Positions 4,636-14,715 of a DNA stretch of 60,217 bases are shown here, piece by piece; the stretch's first letter is position 1; each line of letters starts with the position of its first letter. Source of the stretch: Solirubrobacterales bacterium (GTDB lineage Bacteria > Actinomycetota > Thermoleophilia > Solirubrobacterales > Solirubrobacteraceae); contig JAFAXX010000146.1 in NCBI GenBank assembly GCA_019240655.1, positions 1 to 60,217 on the forward strand, read 5' to 3'. Position numbers and translations under genes: made by a program. Under the pieces are notes generated by a model. The model saw nothing but the letters and a program-made list of their open reading frames with translations. It did no database searches and was not told the DNA's origin.

Positions 4636-4718
4636 GCGGGCGTGGCGGAATCGGTAGACGCGCCGGCTTTAGGTGCCGGTGGGCATCGCCCGTGGGGGTT
4701 CGAGTCCCTCCGCCCGCA
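4636..4718 (+). tRNA. tRNA-Leu (anticodon UAG)
   Basis: A complete type II tRNA. The 7-bp acceptor GCGGGCG pairs with CGCCCGC (4711-4717). The anticodon loop is TTTAGGT, there is a long variable arm with its own stem, and the T-loop reads TTCGAGT. No CCA is encoded. It reads codon CUA and possibly other CUN codons. Confidence 0.97.
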
Positions 4719-4780
4719 CTGGCGATGGCGCGCTCAGCGCGCCGGCTCCCGGTTGGCCGATACCATCGCCAGAGACCCCC

Positions 4781-4852
4781 AGGGGAGTGAGTTAATGGTT
4801 ATGCGCGCGGTCTCCAAAACCGTGAATCCGGGTTCGAATCCCGGCTCCCCTG
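4781..4852 (+). tRNA. tRNA-Trp (anticodon CCA), D-arm atypical
   Basis: The acceptor AGGGGAG pairs with CTCCCCT, the anticodon stem GCGGT pairs with ACCGT around loop CTCCAAA, and the T-arm CCGGG/CCCGG with loop TTCGAAT is perfect. The D-arm is poor: in the standard alignment only two of four stem pairs (G11-C24 and U12-G23) form, and the variable region has four bases. It may be functional with a weak D-stem, or a decaying extra copy. A degenerate copy of its 3' half follows directly. Confidence 0.72.
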
Positions 4853-4860
4853 CTGCACCG

Positions 4861-4902
4861 TCTCAAAGCCGTGAATCCGGTTCCAACCCGGCTGCCCTGC
4901 TG
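4861..4902 (+). repeat. Degenerate copy of the tRNA-Trp 3' half
   Basis: This segment aligns with 4811-4855, the anticodon-to-3'-end part of the preceding tRNA plus the CTG after it. It retains GCCGTGAATCCGG, ACCCGGCT and CCCTGCTG, but carries single-base deletions and substitutions that destroy the anticodon loop and T-loop. It ends directly at the ATG of the YjbQ gene. It looks like a tandem duplication that has decayed. Confidence 0.75.
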
Positions 4903-5364
4903 ATGCGCTCCCACACCGTCTACCGCACGTTTCAGACCGAGCGCCGCCGGGAGTTCGTCCGCATCACCGAGGACGTGGAGGAAGCTGTCCGCGCCGCGGC
5001 GATCTCCGAAGGCATGGCGCTCGTCTCGGCGATGCACATCACCGCCGGGGTGTGGGTCAACGACGATGAGCCGGGCATCCACGCCGACGCGCTGGAATGG
5101 CTCGATAAGCTGGCGCCCCCGACCTGGCAGCCGCCGGACGGTGACGTGGCGCGCGAGCTGCTCCCCGGCCCGGGGGACTACCGCCACCATCGCGGCGGAG
5201 AGGACAACGGCGACGCCCACCTCAAGAACCTCCTCGTCCACCACCAGGTCATCGTCCCGGTGACCGACGGTCGCCTCGACCTCGGCCCCTGGCAGCAGAT
5301 CTTCTACTGCGAGTTCGACGGCCGGCGCGCGAAGCGACTCGTCATCAAGGTCATGGGGGAGTAG
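4903..5364 (+). CDS. YjbQ/UPF0047 family protein
   Basis: A 153-residue protein of the YjbQ family, in which some members have weak thiamine-phosphate synthase activity; the main role is uncertain. Typical features are [17 protein letters not shown] near residues 46-62, the [15 protein letters not shown] segment, and the C-terminal [18 protein letters not shown]. The histidines in MHITAG and in LVHHQ are the conserved family positions. The ATG at 4903 is where family similarity begins; the frame is open further upstream only because it runs through the two tRNA genes. Confidence 0.88.
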
Positions 5365-5516
5365 GCCCGGCGGATGGGCCTCGCGGGCTTCGACGACAGG
5401 CGCTCCCGGGCCACGCCGCGCTCGTGAACCGCTGGTCGGCCGCCCGCCGGCCACCGGCAGCTCGCGCGATGCGAGCTCGGCACTCGAGGACCGGGACGGA
5501 GCTCCGGCTATAGAAG

Positions 5517-5587
5517 AGCGGCGGACGGGAATCGAACCCGCATAATCGGCTTGGAAGGCCGAGGCTCTACCATTGAGCTACCACCGC
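5517..5587 (-). tRNA. tRNA-Gly (anticodon UCC)
   Basis: Complete cloverleaf on the minus strand. The acceptor GCGGTGG pairs with CCGCCGC with one G-U pair, the D-arm reads GCTC...GAGC, the anticodon loop CTTCCAA gives UCC, and the T-arm has loop TTCGATT. CCA is not encoded. It reads GGA and GGG. Confidence 0.97.
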
Positions 5588-5728
5588 AGGGTACGTCGCC
5601 AGCTGAGCACGGCCCGGCGACGATGACAGTTTGCCCCACCGTCGCCGCGTCTCGCAAGCTTCTCGGAACAGTCTGGCATGCCCGCGTCGACCACGGCCCG
5701 GCGGTTGGGCCTAGAATCCTCGGTACCA

Positions 5729-5802
5729 CGGGGAGTGGCGCAGTCTGGTAGCGCACCCGGCTGGGGGCCGGGCGGTCGCAGGTTCAAATCCTGTCTCCCC
5801 GA
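5729..5802 (+). tRNA. tRNA-Pro (anticodon GGG)
   Basis: Complete cloverleaf. The acceptor CGGGGAG pairs with CTCCCCG (5795-5801), the D-arm is GCGC...GCGC, the anticodon stem CCCGG/CCGGG encloses CTGGGGG, and the T-loop is TTCAAAT. CCA is not encoded. Confidence 0.97.
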
Positions 5803-6031
5803 TATAGCGAACAGCCGCCGGGTTCTCAGGGAGCTTCCACCCGCGGCGCCGCGCTTGGCCTCCGTTGTCCGGACGGTGGGATCCTCCGCAACGGACGAGC
5901 GCGTCCGGTCCATGGCGTGTCGACCTCGGCCGCTGGGATTCCTGCCGGGAGTGAAGGGCCGAATCGCCTGGATCTCGGAATCCCAGGGCGGCGGATCCAG
6001 GATCGCGCCGCTGAGACGGAAAGGAGAGGAG

Positions 6032-6613
6032 ATGGGAAAGGTCATCGTGATGAACTGGGTGTCGCTCGACGGCGTGATGCAGGGACCGGGCCGACCTGAC
6101 GAGGACACGCGGGATGGGTTTGAGCACGGCGGCTGGGGCGTCGCGTACGGCGACGAGGCGACCGTCGCCAAGATGGGTGAGCGGATGGGAGGGGATCGGG
6201 CGTTTCTGTTCGGGCGGCACACCTACGAGCAGCTGCTGGCGTCCTGGAACGCTCGGGGCGGCCCGTTCAAGGACGCCCTCAACCAGGCCCGCAAGTACGT
6301 CGCCTCGAGCAACCCCGCGACGAGGCTCGAGTGGCCGCACTCAACTCTTCTGCACGGCGATGTTCCGGCCGCCGTCGCGGATCTCAAGGAGACCGCGGAC
6401 ACGAATCTGGTGATCATGGGTAGCGGAGTGCTGATCGGCTCCCTGATGGCCGCCGACGTGATCGACGAGTATCTGCTGATGATCGCCCCTGTCGTGCTGG
6501 GCACCGGCCGGCGGCTGCTCGCCGGTGGCACGCGGGCATCCCTCCGCCTGCTCGACAGCAGCACCACGAGCAAGGGGGTGCTGATCGCCACGTATGGACG
6601 TGCTTGTGGGTAG
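6032..6613 (+). CDS. RibD C-terminal/DHFR-fold reductase, paralogue 3
   Basis: A 193-residue protein, the third DHFR-fold reductase within 5 kb. It resembles paralogue 2 in its start (NWVSLDGVMQGPGRPDED), EHGGWGV, LFGRHTYEQL, GSGVLIGSLMAADVIDEY and PVVLGTGRRLLAGG, so the two probably arose by duplication. The ATG at 6032 follows AAAGGAGAGGA. A longer upstream frame exists but runs through tRNA-Pro and is ignored. Substrate unknown. Confidence 0.88.
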   Translation: MGKVIVMNWVSLDGVMQGPGRPDEDTRDGFEHGGWGVAYGDEATVAKMGERMGGDRAFLFGRHTYEQLLASWNARGGPFKDALNQARKYVASSNPATRLEWPHSTLLHGDVPAAVADLKETADTNLVIMGSGVLIGSLMAADVIDEYLLMIAPVVLGTGRRLLAGGTRASLRLLDSSTTSKGVLIATYGRACG

Positions 6614-6934
6614 GGAGACGAGGCCCGAGGCGGCGATGGCGCAACGCCGTGCGCGCAAAGGCCGAACACCGAATGCCGCGCTGCGCCGATGACCCCCCAG
6701 GTGGGGGGCGCTCGGGCGGTTCGCTTGACGCTCGGTCCGCCGCGATTTTCACTAGCAGCACTCGCAAAAAGAGAACCCGGCCACGCTAAGTGGCGTCTCT
6801 GGTGCCGGGGAACGGGGGCCGATTGCGTTTCGCAATGTCAACGGCAATGCCCGGGCCGCCGGTACTGACTGAATAGTTGCGTGGCGAGGCTGCCGCGGGT
6901 CGGCTCGTCACGCGCAACGATTGGAGGGCATACC
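6614..6934 (+). other. Intergenic region with short hairpin
   Basis: No gene is seen. A perfect hairpin of six C, an AGGT loop and six G lies at 6693-6708 and could stop transcription from the reductase upstream, but it has no T-run. The Shine-Dalgarno sequence of the next gene is at 6923-6927. Confidence 0.35.
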
Positions 6935-7291
6935 GTGCCAACGAAGAGTGAGACACGCATTCGCCAGGACCAGGATCGCTTCGCCGAGCTGCAGGATCGC
7001 TATCAGGAGCAGGCACAGGAGCAGGCCGACGAAGTCAAGCGGCAGCTTCAGCAGGCCAACGAGACCAGCCGCGAGGCGGTCGGGCAGTACATCCGCGCGG
7101 TGAGCCGTGGCTATCAGGCGTTCATTCCTCAGGCGGTGATCGATCCGCGTCAGGCGATCGACTTGGCCTCGGACGTCGCGGTGCAGAGCTTTGAGCTGCA
7201 GCGCAGCGTGCTGCACGAGCTGGTCAGCGCCGGACAGGTCAACGCGCGGGCGGCGAGTCGGGCGGCCGAGGACCTCACCAACAACCACTAG
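6935..7291 (+). CDS. Coiled-coil, phasin-like small protein (hypothetical)
   Basis: A 118-residue, charged and Gln-rich helical protein. Residues about 8-50 (RIRQDQDRFAELQDRYQEQ and on) read as a continuous coiled coil, followed by an amphipathic segment and a second helix after a Pro-containing turn (FIPQAVIDPRQAIDLASD). The pattern resembles phasins and other granule or membrane-surface proteins, but no polyhydroxyalkanoate gene is nearby, so this is only a likeness. The GTG start at 6935 is chosen because TTGGAGGG precedes it; the upstream ATG at 6881 lacks such a site. Confidence 0.6.
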   Translation: MPTKSETRIRQDQDRFAELQDRYQEQAQEQADEVKRQLQQANETSREAVGQYIRAVSRGYQAFIPQAVIDPRQAIDLASDVAVQSFELQRSVLHELVSAGQVNARAASRAAEDLTNNH

Positions 7292-7660
7292 GCGGCGACA
7301 GCGGAGCGAGCGGCGGCAGACTCTCCTGCCGCCGCTCACCGCCAAGTCGCTTACGAGAAAAGTCCGCCCGCCAGACGGTGAGATGGATTTGGACGGCCGA
7401 CCGCGTCGATGCCGTTCGTCGCCGCCCTTCGCGGCGTGCCATCTTCGCCGGACGCGGCGGTGTTCTCCAGCGCGTCTCGATCGTGACGGGTTCGGATGGC
7501 TGAGCGCGTTGTGGCTTCGTGCGCTACTCCGCGTCTCTTCGGGGCGTGAAGCCTTCGCCGGCCGCTCGCCGTGGCTCGCAGGGAGAGGCCCGTACAATCA
7601 ACGCCAGCGACGCGGCCCAGCGCACCGCGCAGAGCGCAATACAACGGGAGTGCGGCTGAA
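7292..7660 (+). other. Intergenic region after the coiled-coil gene
   Basis: Apart from the terminator hairpin at 7308-7337 I see no gene or RNA here. The frames that cross it are shadows with Arg/Pro/Ser-rich composition. Confidence 0.4.
7308..7337 (+). terminator. 12-bp hairpin terminator
   Basis: A perfect 12-bp inverted repeat, GAGCGGCGGCAG and CTGCCGCCGCTC, with a 6-base loop ACTCTC. It starts 16 bases after the stop of the coiled-coil gene. There is no T-run, which is common for high-GC actinobacterial terminators. Confidence 0.65.
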
Positions 7661-8854
7661 ATGACGCGGGTGGCGATCATCGGCGGCGGCATAGGCGGTC
7701 TGGCCGCGGCGCGCGCGCTGCACCGGCGCGGTGTGGAGCTCGCCGTGTATGAGGCGGCGCCGGAGCTGCGGGAGATCGGCGCCGGGGTGGCGCTCGGGCC
7801 CAACGCGATGAAGGTGCTGCGGGCGCTCGAGCTCGAGAAGGCGGTGCGGGGGGTCGCCGGCCGCTGCGAGTGGCTGGTCTCGCACAACTGGCGCACCGGC
7901 CGGGTGATCTCGCGCACGAGCCAGCGTGAGCAGGCCGCGCTGTACGGCTGCGCGAGTGCGACCGTGCACCGGGCCGACCTGCTCGACGTCCTCGCCGGTT
8001 CGCTACCGGCTCGAGTGGTGACGCTGGGGGCACGCTGCACCGGCGTCGAGTCCGACGACGATGTCGCCAGCGCCCGGTTCCAGGACGGCAGCGCGATCGA
8101 GGCCGATGTCATCGTCGGCGCCGACGGAATTCACTCGGCGGTGCGGGCATCGCTGTTCGGCGCCGACGCGCCGCGGTTCACCGGCAAGATCTGCTATCGC
8201 AGCGTCGTCCCCGTGGCGGCGGTCCCGGGGCCTCCGCCGGCCAGCGACAACGCGCAATGGTTCGGTCCGCACGGCACGGTGGTGCTTTACCCCGTGCGGC
8301 GCGACGAGCTCGTCAACGTCGTCTGCCACTACGATGACGAGGGCTATCGGCACGAGTCGTGGGTGACCGAGTGCGACCGCGACGAGGTGCTCGAGCGCTA
8401 CGCCGGCTGGCACGAGTCGCTGCTGCGAATCTTCTCGGCGGGCGACGTCTGGTACAAGTGGGCGCTGTATGACCGGGACCCGATCCCGCACTGGACGCGG
8501 GGCCGTGTCACCGTCCTGGGCGACGCCGCGCATCCGATGCTGCCCTACCTGGGGCAGGGCGCCTGCCAAGCGATCGAGGACGGATCTGTGCTGGCGTTGG
8601 CGCTCGCCGCCGAGACCGACGATCCGGTGCGGGCGCTGGCACGGTACGAGCGCTCGCGGCGCCCGCGGGCCAGCCAGGTCGTCCTGACCTCGCGGGCGCG
8701 CGGCACGAGCAATCACCTCGCCTCGCCGCTCTCCGCCTGGCGGCGGGACATCGCGATCGCCCTGCGACGGCGCCTGCGGGGCGACCTGGAAGGTCGCGGC
8801 GCGGCCTGGATCCCGGCATACGACGCCAGCTCGCCGGAGGCCCTCGCCGCCTGA
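7661..8854 (+). CDS. FAD-dependent monooxygenase (PHBH-like)
   Basis: A 397-residue flavoprotein of the UbiH/salicylate hydroxylase group, expected to hydroxylate an aromatic or polycyclic substrate with NAD(P)H and O2. The Rossmann motif IGGGIGGLAAARALHRRG lies at residues about 6-23. A DG motif (VIVGADGIHSAVR) follows near residues 150-162, and the GD motif VTVLGDAAHPMLPYLGQG near 282-299. It begins at ATG 7661 after CGGGAG; the longer frame from 7571 has no homology upstream. No pathway genes adjoin it. Confidence 0.9.
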   Translation: MTRVAIIGGGIGGLAAARALHRRGVELAVYEAAPELREIGAGVALGPNAMKVLRALELEKAVRGVAGRCEWLVSHNWRTGRVISRTSQREQAALYGCASATVHRADLLDVLAGSLPARVVTLGARCTGVESDDDVASARFQDGSAIEADVIVGADGIHSAVRASLFGADAPRFTGKICYRSVVPVAAVPGPPPASDNAQWFGPHGTVVLYPVRRDELVNVVCHYDDEGYRHESWVTECDRDEVLERYAGWHESLLRIFSAGDVWYKWALYDRDPIPHWTRGRVTVLGDAAHPMLPYLGQGACQAIEDGSVLALALAAETDDPVRALARYERSRRPRASQVVLTSRARGTSNHLASPLSAWRRDIAIALRRRLRGDLEGRGAAWIPAYDASSPEALAA

Positions 8855-9029: not shown

Positions 9030-12000
9030 ATGAGCCGGCCTGGCTCCCGCCCGTCTTCATTTGAGCGCCTTCGCCGGCTGCCTCTGTTAGGCCGCGCGGC
9101 GGACTGGGGACTCGGACCAAGCGCCGCGTCGAAGCCCACGCGCGAAGCGGGAGCGCGGGTGGCCGGGCTCCGGGTGACCGAGTCCGTGTGTCCATACTGC
9201 GCCGTCGGCTGTGGGCAGCTCGTGTACACCCGCGGCGGGGAGCTCGTCGACATCGAAGGCAACCCACGCTCGCCGATAAACCAGGGCACGCTCTGCCCCA
9301 AGGGCTCGGCCTCGCGCCAGCTGGTCCAGCAGCCCGACCGCGTGACCACGGTCAAGTACCGGGCGCCGGGCGGCGCCGAATGGCAGGAGCTCGAGCTCGA
9401 CCGCGCGATGGACATGATCGCCGAGCGAGTCATCGCGGCCCGAGAGCGGGGATGGCAGGACGTCGACCATCGGGGACGGCGCGTGAACCGGACGCTGGGT
9501 TTCGCTCACCTCGGCGGCGCCACGCTCGACAACGAGGAGAACTATCTGATCAAGAAGTTCTTCACGGCGATGGGAGCGGTCCAGATCGAGAACCAGGCCC
9601 GGATATGACACTCGTCCACGGTGCCCGGTCTGGGCGCTTCGTTCGGCCGCGGAGGCGCGACCGATTTCCTCCAGGCGGCTCAGTTCGCCGATTGCATTCT
9701 GCTCGAGGGCTCGTCGATGGCGGAGTCGCACCCGGTCGGCTTCCGCTGGGTGATGAAGGCCAAGGAGCGCGGGGCGCGGATCATTCACGTCGACCCCCGC
9801 TTCTCCCGCACCAGTCGGTTCGCCGACCGCCACGTGCCGATCCGAGCCGGAACCGACATAGCGTTCCTCGGGGGCCTGATCCGGCACGTGCTGGAGTCCG
9901 GCGCCTACTTCCACGAGTACGTGCTCAACTACACGAACGCCGCGACGATCGTCGACGAGCGCTTTGAGGACACCGAGGACCTCGGCGGACACTTCTCGGG
10001 GTTCGACCCGGAGACCGGCGTCTACGACCTCGCCACGTGGGGCTACAAGGGCGGTCAGGTGCCGGCGGCGGCGGGGGTCCGCGAGCACTCGACGATGGCC
10101 TTCGAGGACCACACGGGGGCGGGCATGTTGGTCGGGGAGGCCGAGCGCGACGAGACGCTGCAGGACCCACGGTGCGTCTTTCAGATCCTGCGCCGGCACT
10201 TCAGCCGCTACACGCCCGAGATGGTGCAGCGCATCTGCGGCATCTCACCGGAGGACTTCCGCTACGTAGCCGACGCGATCGTGGAGAACTCCGGGCGGGA
10301 GCGGACGACGCTTCTCTGTTACGCGGTCGGATGGACCCAGCACACCGCCGGCGTGCAGATGATCCGCGCCGCGTCGATCCTTCAGCTACTGCTCGGCAAC
10401 GTCGGCCGCGCCGGGGGCGGGATCATGGCGCTGCGCGGCCACGCGTCGATCCAGGGCTCGACCGACATCCCGACTCTGTATGACCTCCTGCCGGGGTATC
10501 TGCCGATGCCACACGCCGACGAAGAGGAGGTGACGCTGGAGCGCTACATCGAGCGGGGCGGGTCTGACCGCGGCTGGTGGTCGTTCTACGACGTCTACAT
10601 CGTCTCGCTGCTGAAGGCTTGGTTTGGTCCGGCGGCCAGCGCCGAGAACGAGTTCGGATTTCGGTCCCTGCCCCAGATCTCGGCCAACCACAGTCACTTC
10701 GCCACGATGATGCGCGCGCTCGACGGCGGCGTCGAGGGACTGTTCGTGATGGGCCAGAATCCGGCGGTCGGCTCGCAGCACGCGGGCCTCCAGCGTCGCG
10801 CGCTGGCGAGTCTCGAGTGGCTCGTCGTCAGGGACCTCGCCGAGATCGAAACGGCCACGTTCTGGCGGGACTCCCCCGAGGTCCGCGGCGGAGAGCTGCG
10901 CACGGAGGAGATCAAGACCGAAGTGTTCCTGATGCCGGCTGCTACGCACATCGAGAAGGAAGGTTCCTTCACCAACACCCACCGGCTCGTGCAGTGGAGG
11001 GACAAGGCGCTCGAGCCGCCGGGCGACGCCCGCTCCGAGCTCTGGTTCATGCATCATCTCGCCAAGCGGGTGCTCGCGCGCTACGCGGACTCAACGCGCG
11101 AGCGGGACTGGTCGATCCGGAACCTGAGCTGGGAGTACCCCGAGCACGGGGAGATCGGCGAGCCCGACGTCGAAGCGGTGCTGAAGGAGATCAACGGCTT
11201 CGACGTGAGAACCGGCGAGCCGCTCCCTCTGTTCACCTCGCTGAAGTCGGACGGTTCGACGGCCTGCGGGTGCTGGATCTACTCCGGCATCTACGCCGAC
11301 GGCGTCAACCAGGCCCGGCGGCGCATCCCGGGCGACATCGCCGACCCGCGCGGCGGGTGGGTTTCGCCTGAGTGGGCGTGGGCATGGCCGGCCAACCGGC
11401 GTGTGCTCTACAACCGGGCGTCCGCCGACCCGGAGGGGAGGCCGTGGTCGGAGCGCAAGCGCTACATCTGGTGGGACGCGGAGCAGGGAAGGTGGACCGG
11501 CTACGACGTTCCCGACTTCCCGGTCGACAAGCCGCCGCACTATCGGGCGCCCAAGGACGCAAAGGGCATGGATGCGATCTCCGGCAACGATCCATTCATC
11601 ATGATGGCCGACGGCCGCGGCTGGCTGTTCGCCCCGAGCGGCCTCCACGACGGGCCGATGCCGACCCATTACGAGCCGATCGAGTCGCCGCTGCACAACC
11701 TCCTCTATCCCGACCTCGAGTCGAACCCGGTCGCGCTTCGGTGGAGGCGTCCCGAGAACCCGTACAACCCCGTCGCCGATCCGCGCTATCCACTCGTGGC
11801 CACGACGTTCAGGCTGACCGAGCACCACACCGCCGGGGGAATGAGCCGTAAGGTGCCTTGGCTGGCCGAGCTCCAGCCGGAGATGTTCGCCGAGATCGAC
11901 CCGGTGCTGGCCGCCTCGCGCGGGATTGAGGATGGCGGCTGGATGACCGTCTTCACCGAGCGAGCGGAGATCGAGGCCCGCGCGATCGTCACCGATCGGA

Positions 12001-12284
12001 TCCGGCCGCTGCGCATCGACGGCCAGCTCGTTCATCAGGTCGCGCTGCCGTGGCACTGGGGCTACAGCGACCCGTATCCCGGCGACTCGACGAACGATCT
12101 CGGCGTGCTCTCCGGCGATCCCAACGCCCTGATCCAGGAGTCGAAGGCGTTCTCCTGCGACATCCGTGCCGGACGGCGGATCCGGTCCAGCACCGAACAG
12201 CTCGCCGGTCGCCGCGCCGATCACCGCGTCCAGCCAAACGACGACGACGTCCTGGCCGAGTACCCGATGCAGACGCCGCCATGA
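9030..12284 (+). CDS. fdnG: Formate dehydrogenase catalytic subunit, selenocysteine-containing
   Basis: One gene of 1084 residues read through an in-frame UGA at 9606-9608, which should insert selenocysteine at residue 193. The context before and after it (NQARI-U-HSSTVPGLG) is the active-site signature of FdhF/FdnG, with Sec binding the molybdenum and the adjacent His. Upstream, CPYCAVGCG and LCPKG bind a [4Fe-4S] cluster. Downstream come bis-MGD-binding and a C-terminal molydopterin-binding domain. It oxidises formate to CO2. The N-terminus has no clear Tat signal, unlike E. coli FdnG, so the protein may stay on the cytoplasmic side. The stop overlaps the start of the iron-sulfur subunit gene (ATGA). 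A SECIS hairpin follows the UGA. Confidence 0.95.
9621..9637 (+). promoter_or_regulatory. Bacterial SECIS element for UGA at 9606
   Basis: A perfect 6-bp stem, GTGCCC (9621-9626) and GGGCGC (9632-9637, one G-U pair), closes a 5-base loop GGTCT (9627-9631). The stem starts 12 bases after the UGA. The GGUCU loop and this distance match the SelB-binding hairpin known from E. coli fdhF. It lies within the coding sequence, as bacterial SECIS elements do. Confidence 0.9.
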
Positions 12285-13324
12285 CCGAGTCGACCCGCGC
12301 CAGTCAGAGCGAAATCGCGATCCATCGCGCGGGCGCGCAGCGCATGGGTTTCTTCACCGACACCACGGTGTGCATCGGCTGCAAGGCATGTGAGGTCGCG
12401 TGCAAGCAGTGGAACGACCTCCCGGCCGACGGCTCCCGGTTCGTGGCCGGCGGCTCCTACGACCATACCGGCGAGCTGTCGGCCTCGACCTGGCGCCACG
12501 TGCGCTTCATCGAGATGCTCGAGCCCTCGCCCGAGCTGCGCGCCGAGGCCGAGCTGGCCGTGCGCGCGAACGGCGGCGGCTCCATTCCGGACATCCCCGC
12601 GGCCGGCGGCGGGAACGCCGGCCCCGGCCAGCCGCTCGACGTCGTGCAAGTGGGCGAGCCAGCGGCCGCGAGCGGCAACGGTGCGCCCACGTTGCCGGGG
12701 GTGGGCGAGTGGATCTTCATGTCCGATGTGTGCAAGCACTGCACCAACGCTGGTTGCCTGGATGCCTGCCCGACCGGGGCGCTGATCCGCACCGAGTTCG
12801 AGACCGTCGTGCTGCAGCCCGACGTCTGCAACGGGTGCGGCTACTGCGTGCCGTCGTGTCCGTTCGGCGTCGTCGATCGTGACCACATCGACGGGCGCGC
12901 CGGCAAATGCACGCTGTGCTACGACCGGCTCGAGGATGGACTCGAGCCGGCGTGCGCGAAGGCGTGTCCAACCGACTCGATCATCTTCGGGCCCCATGAG
13001 GAGCTGGTCGAGCTCGCCGCCCGGCGGGTCGCCGAACTACACCACCGCGGGCTCACCGGTGCGTACCTGTACGGGGCCGGGGACGATCCCGGCGACGAGC
13101 TGGCCGGTGGCCTGGGGGCGTTCTTCCTGCTCACCGAGCCGCCGGAGCGCTACGGGCTTCCTGCCCACGCCGACTCCCCGATCCAGGAGAACACGGTTCC
13201 GGCGACGGCGGCGGCGCTGAGTGCCGGACTGCTGGCCGCGGCCGGCGCCGCGCTGGCGTTCGTGACCGCCCAGCGGAGCTCCCGGCGGGGCGCGCGCACC
13301 GCGATCGCCAGGCGGCGCTCGTGA
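12281..13324 (+). CDS. fdnH: Formate dehydrogenase iron-sulfur subunit
   Basis: A 347-residue ferredoxin-like electron-transfer subunit. Four cysteine clusters are visible in order: CIGCKACEVACKQW, CKHCTNAGCLDACP, CNGCGYCVPSCPFG and CTLCYDRLEDGLEPACAKACP, enough for four [4Fe-4S] clusters carrying electrons from the catalytic subunit to the membrane. A Gly/Pro/Ala-rich insert follows the first cluster. The C-terminus has one hydrophobic segment (about 309-330) that could anchor it. ATG 12281 overlaps the stop of the catalytic gene, and its own stop overlaps the GTG of the membrane subunit. Confidence 0.95.
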   Translation: MTESTRASQSEIAIHRAGAQRMGFFTDTTVCIGCKACEVACKQWNDLPADGSRFVAGGSYDHTGELSASTWRHVRFIEMLEPSPELRAEAELAVRANGGGSIPDIPAAGGGNAGPGQPLDVVQVGEPAAASGNGAPTLPGVGEWIFMSDVCKHCTNAGCLDACPTGALIRTEFETVVLQPDVCNGCGYCVPSCPFGVVDRDHIDGRAGKCTLCYDRLEDGLEPACAKACPTDSIIFGPHEELVELAARRVAELHHRGLTGAYLYGAGDDPGDELAGGLGAFFLLTEPPERYGLPAHADSPIQENTVPATAAALSAGLLAAAGAALAFVTAQRSSRRGARTAIARRRS

Positions 13325-14715
13325 GCGACGAGCGAGGACCCGTGCCGGTGCCCGAGGGACCGCTGACCTCTATGCCTACACCTCCGAGCGCGGCGCCGTC
13401 CGAGGAGCCGCCGGCCGAAAGCGCGGAGCGCGAGCGGGTGTGGGCGGCGGGTCGCGGCGGTGGGGCGCGGGACATGCGCCCCGCCGTCGGCACGCGCGGA
13501 GCACCCGGCTCCTGGCGGCGCGCCGGCGCTGGCGTGGCGCTTGCCCGACCCGGGTGGGCAGACGCCGTGTGGAGCTTCCTCTACAAGCACGATACGCGCT
13601 ACGGCGCCGAGGAGGTCGACTCCGAGCTGGTCGCCGAGGCGAACCGCAAGATGCGCGATGCACCGTGCCCGCGGCCGCATGGGCCGTTCATAAAGCCGCC
13701 GGTGTGGACGTGGGAGGTGCCGCTGTACTTCTGGTTCGGCGGCGCGGCGTCAGGCGCGGCCTTCGCGGCCCTCGCCTGCGATCTGGTTGGCGATCGCCGC
13801 TCCGCTCGGATCGCGCGCGCCGTCTCGCTCGGCCTCGTCGCCCCGGCTCCGCTGCTGTTGGTCGCGGACCTCGGACGCCCCGGGCGCTTCTTGAACATGC
13901 TGCGCGTGTTCAAGCCGCGGTCGCCGATGAACCTTGGGGCGTGGTGCCTGATGGCGTTCAGCGCCAGCGATGCCGGCGCGGTAGGGGCCGATCTTCTCGA
14001 TTGCGGGCGCGCAGCTCGCGCGCTTGGTGCCGGCAGCGCGCTCCTGGGCTCGTACCTCGGTTCCTACACCGGGGTACTGCTCGCCTCCACCGCGGTTCCG
14101 GTGTGGTCACGCAGCCGGCTATTCCTCGGTCCGATCTTCGTCGCCACCGCGACAGGAACCGGTGCCGCGGCGACCCGTCTCACCCTCGTGGCCAGCGGCT
14201 TGCCGGACGGCCACCCGACGCGCGAGGCGCTGAGCACGATCGAGACCGCGGCGATGCTCGTCGAGCTGGCGTTGTCGCGCATGAACGAGCACCGTCTCGG
14301 CCGGACGGGTGACGCGCTGCGCGGAGGCCGGCCCCGGCGGCTGTTCGCCGCCGCCCAGTGGTCCGTGCGTGCCGGGCTGGCGTCTCGACTCGCCGGCCGC
14401 CGCCTGGGCCCCCCGGCGCAGTACCTGGCGAGCGTTCTCTACCTGGCCGCTGGGCTCGCATTCCGGTTCGCGTGGGTCGAGGCGGGCAAGGCCTCGGCGC
14501 GCGATCACGAGGCGGTCGCGCGCGCTGGACGCCGCGGGGCAACCGGCGAGGCCGGCGTGTACCCGCCTCAGCCGGCGCGCCGTCTGCGCTCCACGGCGCG
14601 TCCCGCCGGCGGCCCGGCGCAGGCGCGGCTCCTCTCGGCGTGGACCGAAACCGTTCGCCGCGTGAGCCTAATCGTCGAGGGTGGGCTCCATCGGCTGACC
14701 CGCGTCGACGGTTGA
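13321..14715 (+). CDS. nrfD: NrfD-family membrane subunit of formate dehydrogenase
   Basis: A 464-residue polytopic membrane protein of the NrfD/PsrC family, the quinone-facing subunit in many molybdoenzyme complexes. The hallmark PVWTWEVPLYFWFGGAASG and DLGRPGRFLNMLRVFKPRS segments are present, followed by SPMNLGAWCL and several hydrophobic helices. A roughly 85-residue Pro/Ala/Arg-rich N-terminal extension precedes the family core, so the true start could lie downstream. It replaces the cytochrome b subunit (FdnI) of E. coli FDH-N, so the complex probably transfers electrons to quinone without heme. Starts at GTG 13321 inside the fdnH stop. Confidence 0.88.
   Translation: MSDERGPVPVPEGPLTSMPTPPSAAPSEEPPAESAERERVWAAGRGGGARDMRPAVGTRGAPGSWRRAGAGVALARPGWADAVWSFLYKHDTRYGAEEVDSELVAEANRKMRDAPCPRPHGPFIKPPVWTWEVPLYFWFGGAASGAAFAALACDLVGDRRSARIARAVSLGLVAPAPLLLVADLGRPGRFLNMLRVFKPRSPMNLGAWCLMAFSASDAGAVGADLLDCGRAARALGAGSALLGSYLGSYTGVLLASTAVPVWSRSRLFLGPIFVATATGTGAAATRLTLVASGLPDGHPTREALSTIETAAMLVELALSRMNEHRLGRTGDALRGGRPRRLFAAAQWSVRAGLASRLAGRRLGPPAQYLASVLYLAAGLAFRFAWVEAGKASARDHEAVARAGRRGATGEAGVYPPQPARRLRSTARPAGGPAQARLLSAWTETVRRVSLIVEGGLHRLTRVDG

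What the first reader, a model, noticed from the sequence alone, without database searches (positions are those of the whole stretch)
9030..12284. Selenocysteine formate dehydrogenase with an intact SECIS
The reading frame of the catalytic subunit is split by one UGA exactly where FdhF/FdnG carry Sec (NQARI-U-HSSTV). Twelve bases later a 6-bp stem closes a GGUCU loop, the known SelB target. An ordinary annotation would report two broken genes. Sec use is patchy in actinobacteria, so the genome should also encode SelA, SelB, SelD and tRNA-Sec.
Basis: partly seen in the sequence, partly recalled or inferred. Interest (0 to 1): 0.8.

Follow-up and report, generated by a model that had tools for sequence, protein, structure and literature searches.

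The report
Selenocysteine formate dehydrogenase, Solirubrobacterales actinobacterium
The gene split by one UGA codon is a normal selenium-dependent formate dehydrogenase that reads UGA as selenocysteine using a standard RNA hairpin, and the same genome carries the full machinery for it, so it is a well-supported but ordinary member of a known family.

Summary
The observation and its interpretation both hold. Window 9030-12284 (+) is one 1084-residue formate dehydrogenase alpha subunit interrupted only by UGA at codon 193 (9606-9608). A 6-bp hairpin with loop GGUCU starts 12 bases later. Its loop sits at positions 22-26 counted from the U of UGA, the same place as in E. coli fdhF and fdnG. It is the only one of 1199 TGA trinucleotides in the window with this geometry. 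In 72 distinct UGA-bearing relatives the two synonymous third positions facing each other in the stem co-vary (66 of 72 Watson-Crick; shuffles average 27, maximum 42). Relatives with Cys there lose the hairpin. The same genome encodes tRNA-Sec(UCA), SelA, SelB with its mRNA-binding wing domain, and SelD, plus three further UGA-bearing FDH genes. Across the order, UGA-FDH and Sec machinery co-occur. The enzyme sits in a three-gene operon with a 4Fe-4S subunit and an NrfD-type membrane subunit, so it is probably quinone-linked. The family is already named (NF041513). An actinobacterium with the same set of Sec-FDHs has been shown to need selenium to remove formate (PMC7176365). Ordinary; new member of a known kind.

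The parts
9030..12284 (+). fdhA: formate dehydrogenase alpha subunit, 1084 residues, Sec at codon 193
   Evidence: NF041513 1685.6 bits (cut-off 1400), TIGR01553 962.3 bits (cut-off 814.2); Molybdop_Fe4S4, Molybdopterin, Molydop_binding domains; 38% identical to E. coli FdnG over 1039 positions
9606..9608 (+). UGA codon read as selenocysteine (residue 193)
   Evidence: only internal stop of the frame; TGA in 108 of 109 Sec-site matches among fetched relatives
9621..9637 (+). bacterial SECIS hairpin: stem 9621-9626 with 9632-9637, loop GGUCU 9627-9631
   Evidence: same register as E. coli fdhF and fdnG; covariation of facing synonymous positions; absent from Cys homologues
12281..13324 (+). fdhB: 4Fe-4S electron-transfer subunit (347 aa), start overlaps the fdhA stop (ATGA)
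   Evidence: Fer4_11 79.7 bits; best NCBIfam match TIGR01582 FDH-beta, 174 bits, below cut-off 334.7; overlap seen
13321..14715 (+). fdhC: NrfD-family membrane subunit (464 aa), GTG start overlaps the fdhB stop (GTGA)
   Evidence: PF03916 NrfD 66.6 bits, cut-off 25.8

Best explanation
This is a selenocysteine-containing, molybdopterin formate dehydrogenase of the FDH-N/O type in an uncultured Solirubrobacterales actinobacterium. SelB carrying Sec-tRNA-Sec(UCA) binds the GGUCU hairpin just after the UGA and inserts Sec at residue 193, the residue that ligates Mo/W at the active site. SelA, SelD and tRNA-Sec supply the charged tRNA. Electrons from formate pass through the 4Fe-4S beta subunit to an NrfD-type membrane subunit and probably to the quinone pool. 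No Tat-like signal precedes the Fe-S domain, so the active site probably faces the cytoplasm. Shown: frame, UGA, hairpin register, covariation, machinery, operon. Inferred from established family knowledge: Sec insertion itself, metal, electron route, sidedness.
For: Intact frame apart from one UGA at the conserved site. SECIS in E. coli register and unique in the window. Third-position covariation of columns 18 and 30: 66 of 72 Watson-Crick against a shuffled mean of 27 and maximum of 42; 98.2% of cells paired, falling to 27-59% when the partner strand is slid by 1-3 bases. Cys homologues lack the hairpin. tRNA-Sec, SelB, SelA and SelD in the same genome. Three more UGA-FDH genes in the genome. 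Of 63 genomes of the order with UGA-FDH, 56 have SelA or tRNA-Sec, against 1 of 11 with Cys-only FDH. In an actinobacterium with a similar set of FDH complexes, formate removal depended on selenite and the FDH and Sel proteins were detected (PMC7176365).
Against: The genome is a draft in 191 contigs (91.5% complete, 4.44% contamination) and fdhA, selAB, selD and tRNA-Sec lie on four separate contigs, so mixing of organisms is not formally excluded; G+C is similar (0.70-0.73). Seven of 63 UGA-FDH genomes showed neither SelA nor tRNA-Sec at the thresholds used, one of them 97% complete. No expression or protein data for this organism. Substrate, metal and electron acceptor are by homology only.
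Confidence: 0.97

Rival explanations
1. The UGA is a real stop or sequencing error in a broken (pseudo) fdhA, or in a gene whose true residue is Cys.
For: Cys homologues of this enzyme family exist in the same order.
Against: 108 of 109 Sec-site matches among relatives have TGA; three further FDH genes of the genome have TGA at the same site; 891 codons stay open after it; the hairpin is under selection at synonymous positions.
Confidence: 0.01
2. UGA is read through as another amino acid (e.g. Trp by near-cognate suppression or a code change) rather than Sec.
For: None found.
Against: A tRNA-Sec with anticodon UCA is present together with SelA/B/D; UGA serves as the normal stop elsewhere in the window, e.g. 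at the end of fdhA itself; the hairpin has the SelB-binding register.
Confidence: 0.01
3. Sec-FDH as described, but the sel genes come from a contaminating genome in the bin and the host cannot decode Sec.
For: Genes lie on four contigs; contamination 4.44%.
Against: Many genomes of the same genus carry SelA and/or tRNA-Sec, and in relatives fdhA, selA and tRNA-Sec lie within about 12 kb of each other, e.g. G080:C304 and G122:C68; G+C matches.
Confidence: 0.02

Closest known systems
NF041513 formate_DH_Act (curated NCBI family of actinobacterial formate dehydrogenase)
   Same: Full-length match well over the curated cut-off (1685.6 vs 1400 bits); the three long FDH genes of this genome all pass.
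   Different: Nothing found that sets this protein apart.
FDH1/FDH2/FDH3 of Actinomycetospora chiangmaiensis (PMC7176365)
   Same: Sec-containing alpha subunits of 1078 and 1089 aa in membrane-type complexes, plus a cytoplasmic FDH with subunits of 640, 614 and 316 aa. Here a 1084-residue alpha subunit, plus a 648-residue UGA gene followed by NuoF-like and NuoG-like frames.
   Different: Here three long alpha genes instead of two, and selA-selB are not beside this fdh operon; different order of Actinobacteria.
E. coli FdnGHI (FDH-N) and FdhF SECIS
   Same: Sec at the homologous residue; U17 and loop at positions 22-26 in identical register; alpha-beta-gamma operon order.
   Different: Gamma subunit is NrfD-type rather than FdnI; no Tat-like signal; the stem is predicted more stable and continuous (U17 pairs rather than bulges).
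Desulfovibrio Sec-FDH structures (1h0h, 6sdr, 8cm4)
   Same: Best sequence matches among solved structures, E about 1e-213 to 1e-224; that they are from Desulfovibrio is from memory.
   Different: Partner subunits not compared; structure not modelled here.

Membership tests
Selenocysteine formate dehydrogenase alpha subunit (NF041513 / TIGR01553) | Score above curated cut-off | tested here: met
   NF041513 1685.6 (cut-off 1400); TIGR01553 962.3 (cut-off 814.2)
Selenocysteine formate dehydrogenase alpha subunit (NF041513 / TIGR01553) | Fe4S4, molybdopterin and dinucleotide-binding domains | tested here: met
   PF04879, PF00384, PF01568 all above cut-off
Selenocysteine formate dehydrogenase alpha subunit (NF041513 / TIGR01553) | In-frame UGA at the metal-ligand position | tested here: met
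   codon 193, in the same sequence context as U196 of FdnG and U140 of FdhF
Selenocysteine formate dehydrogenase alpha subunit (NF041513 / TIGR01553) | Formate oxidation activity | not testable with these tools
   homology only
Bacterial SECIS element | Hairpin just downstream of UGA with SelB-binding apical loop in the E. coli register | tested here: met
   GGUCU at positions 22-26, as fdhF
Bacterial SECIS element | Stem maintained by compensatory change among relatives | tested here: met
Bacterial SECIS element | Binding by the genome's own SelB | not testable with these tools
   SelB with SelB-wing_3 domain is present
Sec-decoding trait | tRNA-Sec(UCA), SelA, SelB, SelD in the genome | tested here: met
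FDH-N (FdnGHI) complex | FdnI-type gamma subunit and Tat-exported alpha subunit | tested here: not met
   gamma is PF03916 NrfD; no twin-arginine motif in the N-terminus; so the complex is FDH-N-like, not FDH-N proper

The most novel reading that the evidence does not exclude
The order may contain selenoproteins not yet recognised. Several highly complete relatives (e.g. G072 98%, G208 96%, G185 95%, G211 95%) have tRNA-Sec and SelA, but no UGA-bearing FDH of either type was found in them, nor a UGA gene with a GGUC-type SECIS beside their selA.
Probability: 0.25. Interest if true: 0.4.

Novelty: new member of a known kind. Interest (0 to 1): 0.15.

Why it matters
It settles, as far as sequence can, that this uncultured actinobacterium decodes UGA as selenocysteine, and that Sec-FDH with its machinery is common, though patchy, in Solirubrobacterales. 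The practical point is annotation: four catalytic FDH genes of this genome would be cut or lost by callers that treat UGA only as a stop. It does not change the understanding of Sec insertion.

Tried and rejected
Folding energy of the hairpin region was uninformative (z 0.90). The covariance model R1 finds the three long FDH SECIS in the genome at E 1e-9 to 1e-10, but those sequences were used to build it, and it missed the shorter FDH's SECIS. An apparent in-frame TAG in a G072 FDH-like gene, a possible UAG-Sec case, proved to be that gene's ordinary terminal stop, and the G072 tRNA-Sec has anticodon UCA. A scan of 12-20 kb around selA in nine sel-positive relatives found no new SECIS-bearing UGA gene beyond the FDH already known in G131. 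Paper searches for Solirubrobacterales plus selenocysteine and for PGAP plus selenoprotein gave nothing on point.

Full report
OBSERVATION. Reading window 9030-12284 (+) with TGA as Sec gives a single protein with one internal TGA at codon 193, in LIKKFFTAMGAVQIENQARI-U-HSSTVPGLGASFGRGG, and the terminal TGA. Without recoding, the frame is reported as ORFs of 192 and 887 aa. The hairpin is at 9621-9637: GUGCCC / GGUCU / GGGCGC, with one U-G pair. Counting the U of UGA as 1, the loop occupies 22-26 and position 17 is U. Direct comparison with E. coli K-12 MG1655 fdhF (GGUCU at 22-26, U17) and fdnG (AGUCU at 22-26, U17) shows the same register.

CHANCE. The thermodynamic fold is no better than shuffles in this G+C-rich DNA. 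Geometry is decisive instead: of 634 + 565 TGA trinucleotides on the two strands of the window, one has GGTCT at +21 with six pairs, and it is the in-frame one. In other stretches of the genome, 3 of 1390 do, one in each stretch that holds another FDH gene (sites).

RELATIVES. Of 109 Sec-site matches in the loci then fetched, 108 have TGA and 1 has TGC. After adding Cys forms and removing duplicates there were 72 UGA and 16 non-UGA sequences. In the UGA set, stem pairs 19-29, 20-28 and 21-27 are invariant. Columns 18 and 30 are third codon positions of Val (GTN) and Gly (GGN), free at the protein level, yet 66 of 72 are Watson-Crick (C-G 29, G-C 28, T-A 9) against a shuffled mean of 27.1 and maximum of 42 in 10,000. 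On a 37-sequence alignment 98.2% of cells pair and every slid register falls to 59% or less. In the Cys homologues the Pro codon CCC of the stem is mostly replaced by Val, Ala or Ile codons and the loop sequence drifts. These sequences are related, so the counts are not independent events, but three pair types spread over several phyla are not explained by one inherited change.

MACHINERY. The window's own genome (G000, 4.06 Mb, 191 contigs, 91.5% complete) holds tRNA-Sec with anticodon UCA at C71:1655-1747. By inspection of the sequence printed it has an 8-bp acceptor stem, 5-bp T stem and G73. SelA (464 bits) and SelB (292 bits) are adjacent at C39, beside a MoaD-MoaE-like frame (the last by reading the translation). 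SelB has the SelB-wing_3 domain. SelD (367 bits) is at C144 and carries Cys (GAGCGCK), not Sec.

OTHER SELENOPROTEINS IN THE SAME GENOME. Two paralogues pass NF041513, each with one TGA (C141, C64), with the same hairpin. A fourth gene at C156 encodes a shorter FDH, CNRT-U-HAPSVVGLATVF, whose hairpin GUCGUC / GGUCU / GGCGAC has identical register. It is followed by frames that read as NuoF-like and NuoG-N-terminal-like (by reading; no family search was run on them). This set resembles Actinomycetospora chiangmaiensis FDH1, FDH2 and FDH3 (alpha subunits 1078, 1089 and 640 aa; FDH3 partners 614 and 316 aa), where removal of formate depended on selenite and the FDH and Sel proteins were detected by proteomics (PMC7176365).

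CO-OCCURRENCE. In 232 genomes of the order, 63 have a UGA-FDH found by this query; 56 of these have SelA or tRNA-Sec. Of 11 genomes with only Cys FDH at a visible site, 1 does (Fisher p = 2.7e-7; species are related, so the p-value is indicative only). In relatives the three parts are often neighbours, e.g. G080:C304 (fdhA 4716-7937, tRNA-Sec 11351, selA 11583) and G122:C68.

MECHANISM. The alpha gene overlaps fdhB by ATGA and fdhB overlaps the NrfD-type gene by GTGA, so translation of the partners may be coupled to read-through of the UGA (inference). The beta subunit has 4Fe-4S domains and the third is NrfD. No twin-arginine motif precedes the CPYC Fe-S motif, unlike the exported E. coli FDH-N (known from the literature, not tested here), so a cytoplasm-facing, quinone-linked enzyme is the likeliest reading.

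VERDICT. FdhA is the most widespread bacterial selenoprotein (PMC1794560, PMC13188914), Sec use in Actinobacteria has been recorded since at least 2006 (PMC1794560), and the family is already modelled (NF041513). It is ordinary and well supported.

Noticed in passing
G000:C156:23324-25267 (-), L170:3325-5268: Fourth UGA-bearing gene of the genome: a 648-residue FDH without the N-terminal Fe-S domain, with a SECIS of identical register, followed by NuoF-like and NuoG-like frames. Only G131 among 15 checked relatives has the UGA form.
   Followed up: yes
G072, G208, G185, G211, G207, G118, G113 (other genomes of the order): Highly complete genomes with SelA and in most cases tRNA-Sec but no UGA-FDH found; what selenoprotein keeps the machinery is unknown.
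   Followed up: partly
codons 195-202 of fdhA homologues: The Pro codon CCC in the SECIS stem is constant in UGA forms and mostly Val, Ala or Ile in Cys forms, suggesting that the RNA hairpin dictates an amino acid in the enzyme.
   Followed up: partly
G175 (97% complete) and six other genomes: UGA-FDH present but neither SelA nor tRNA-Sec found at the thresholds used.
   Followed up: no
L034, L035, L037, L042, L043, L045, L091: SECIS loop is AGUUU or AGUCU instead of GGUCU; AGUCU is also the E. coli fdnG loop.
   Followed up: partly
L015 (G000:C39) 10225-11061 (-): selA-selB lie next to a MoaD-MoaE-like fusion, linking Sec synthesis with molybdopterin synthesis.
   Followed up: no
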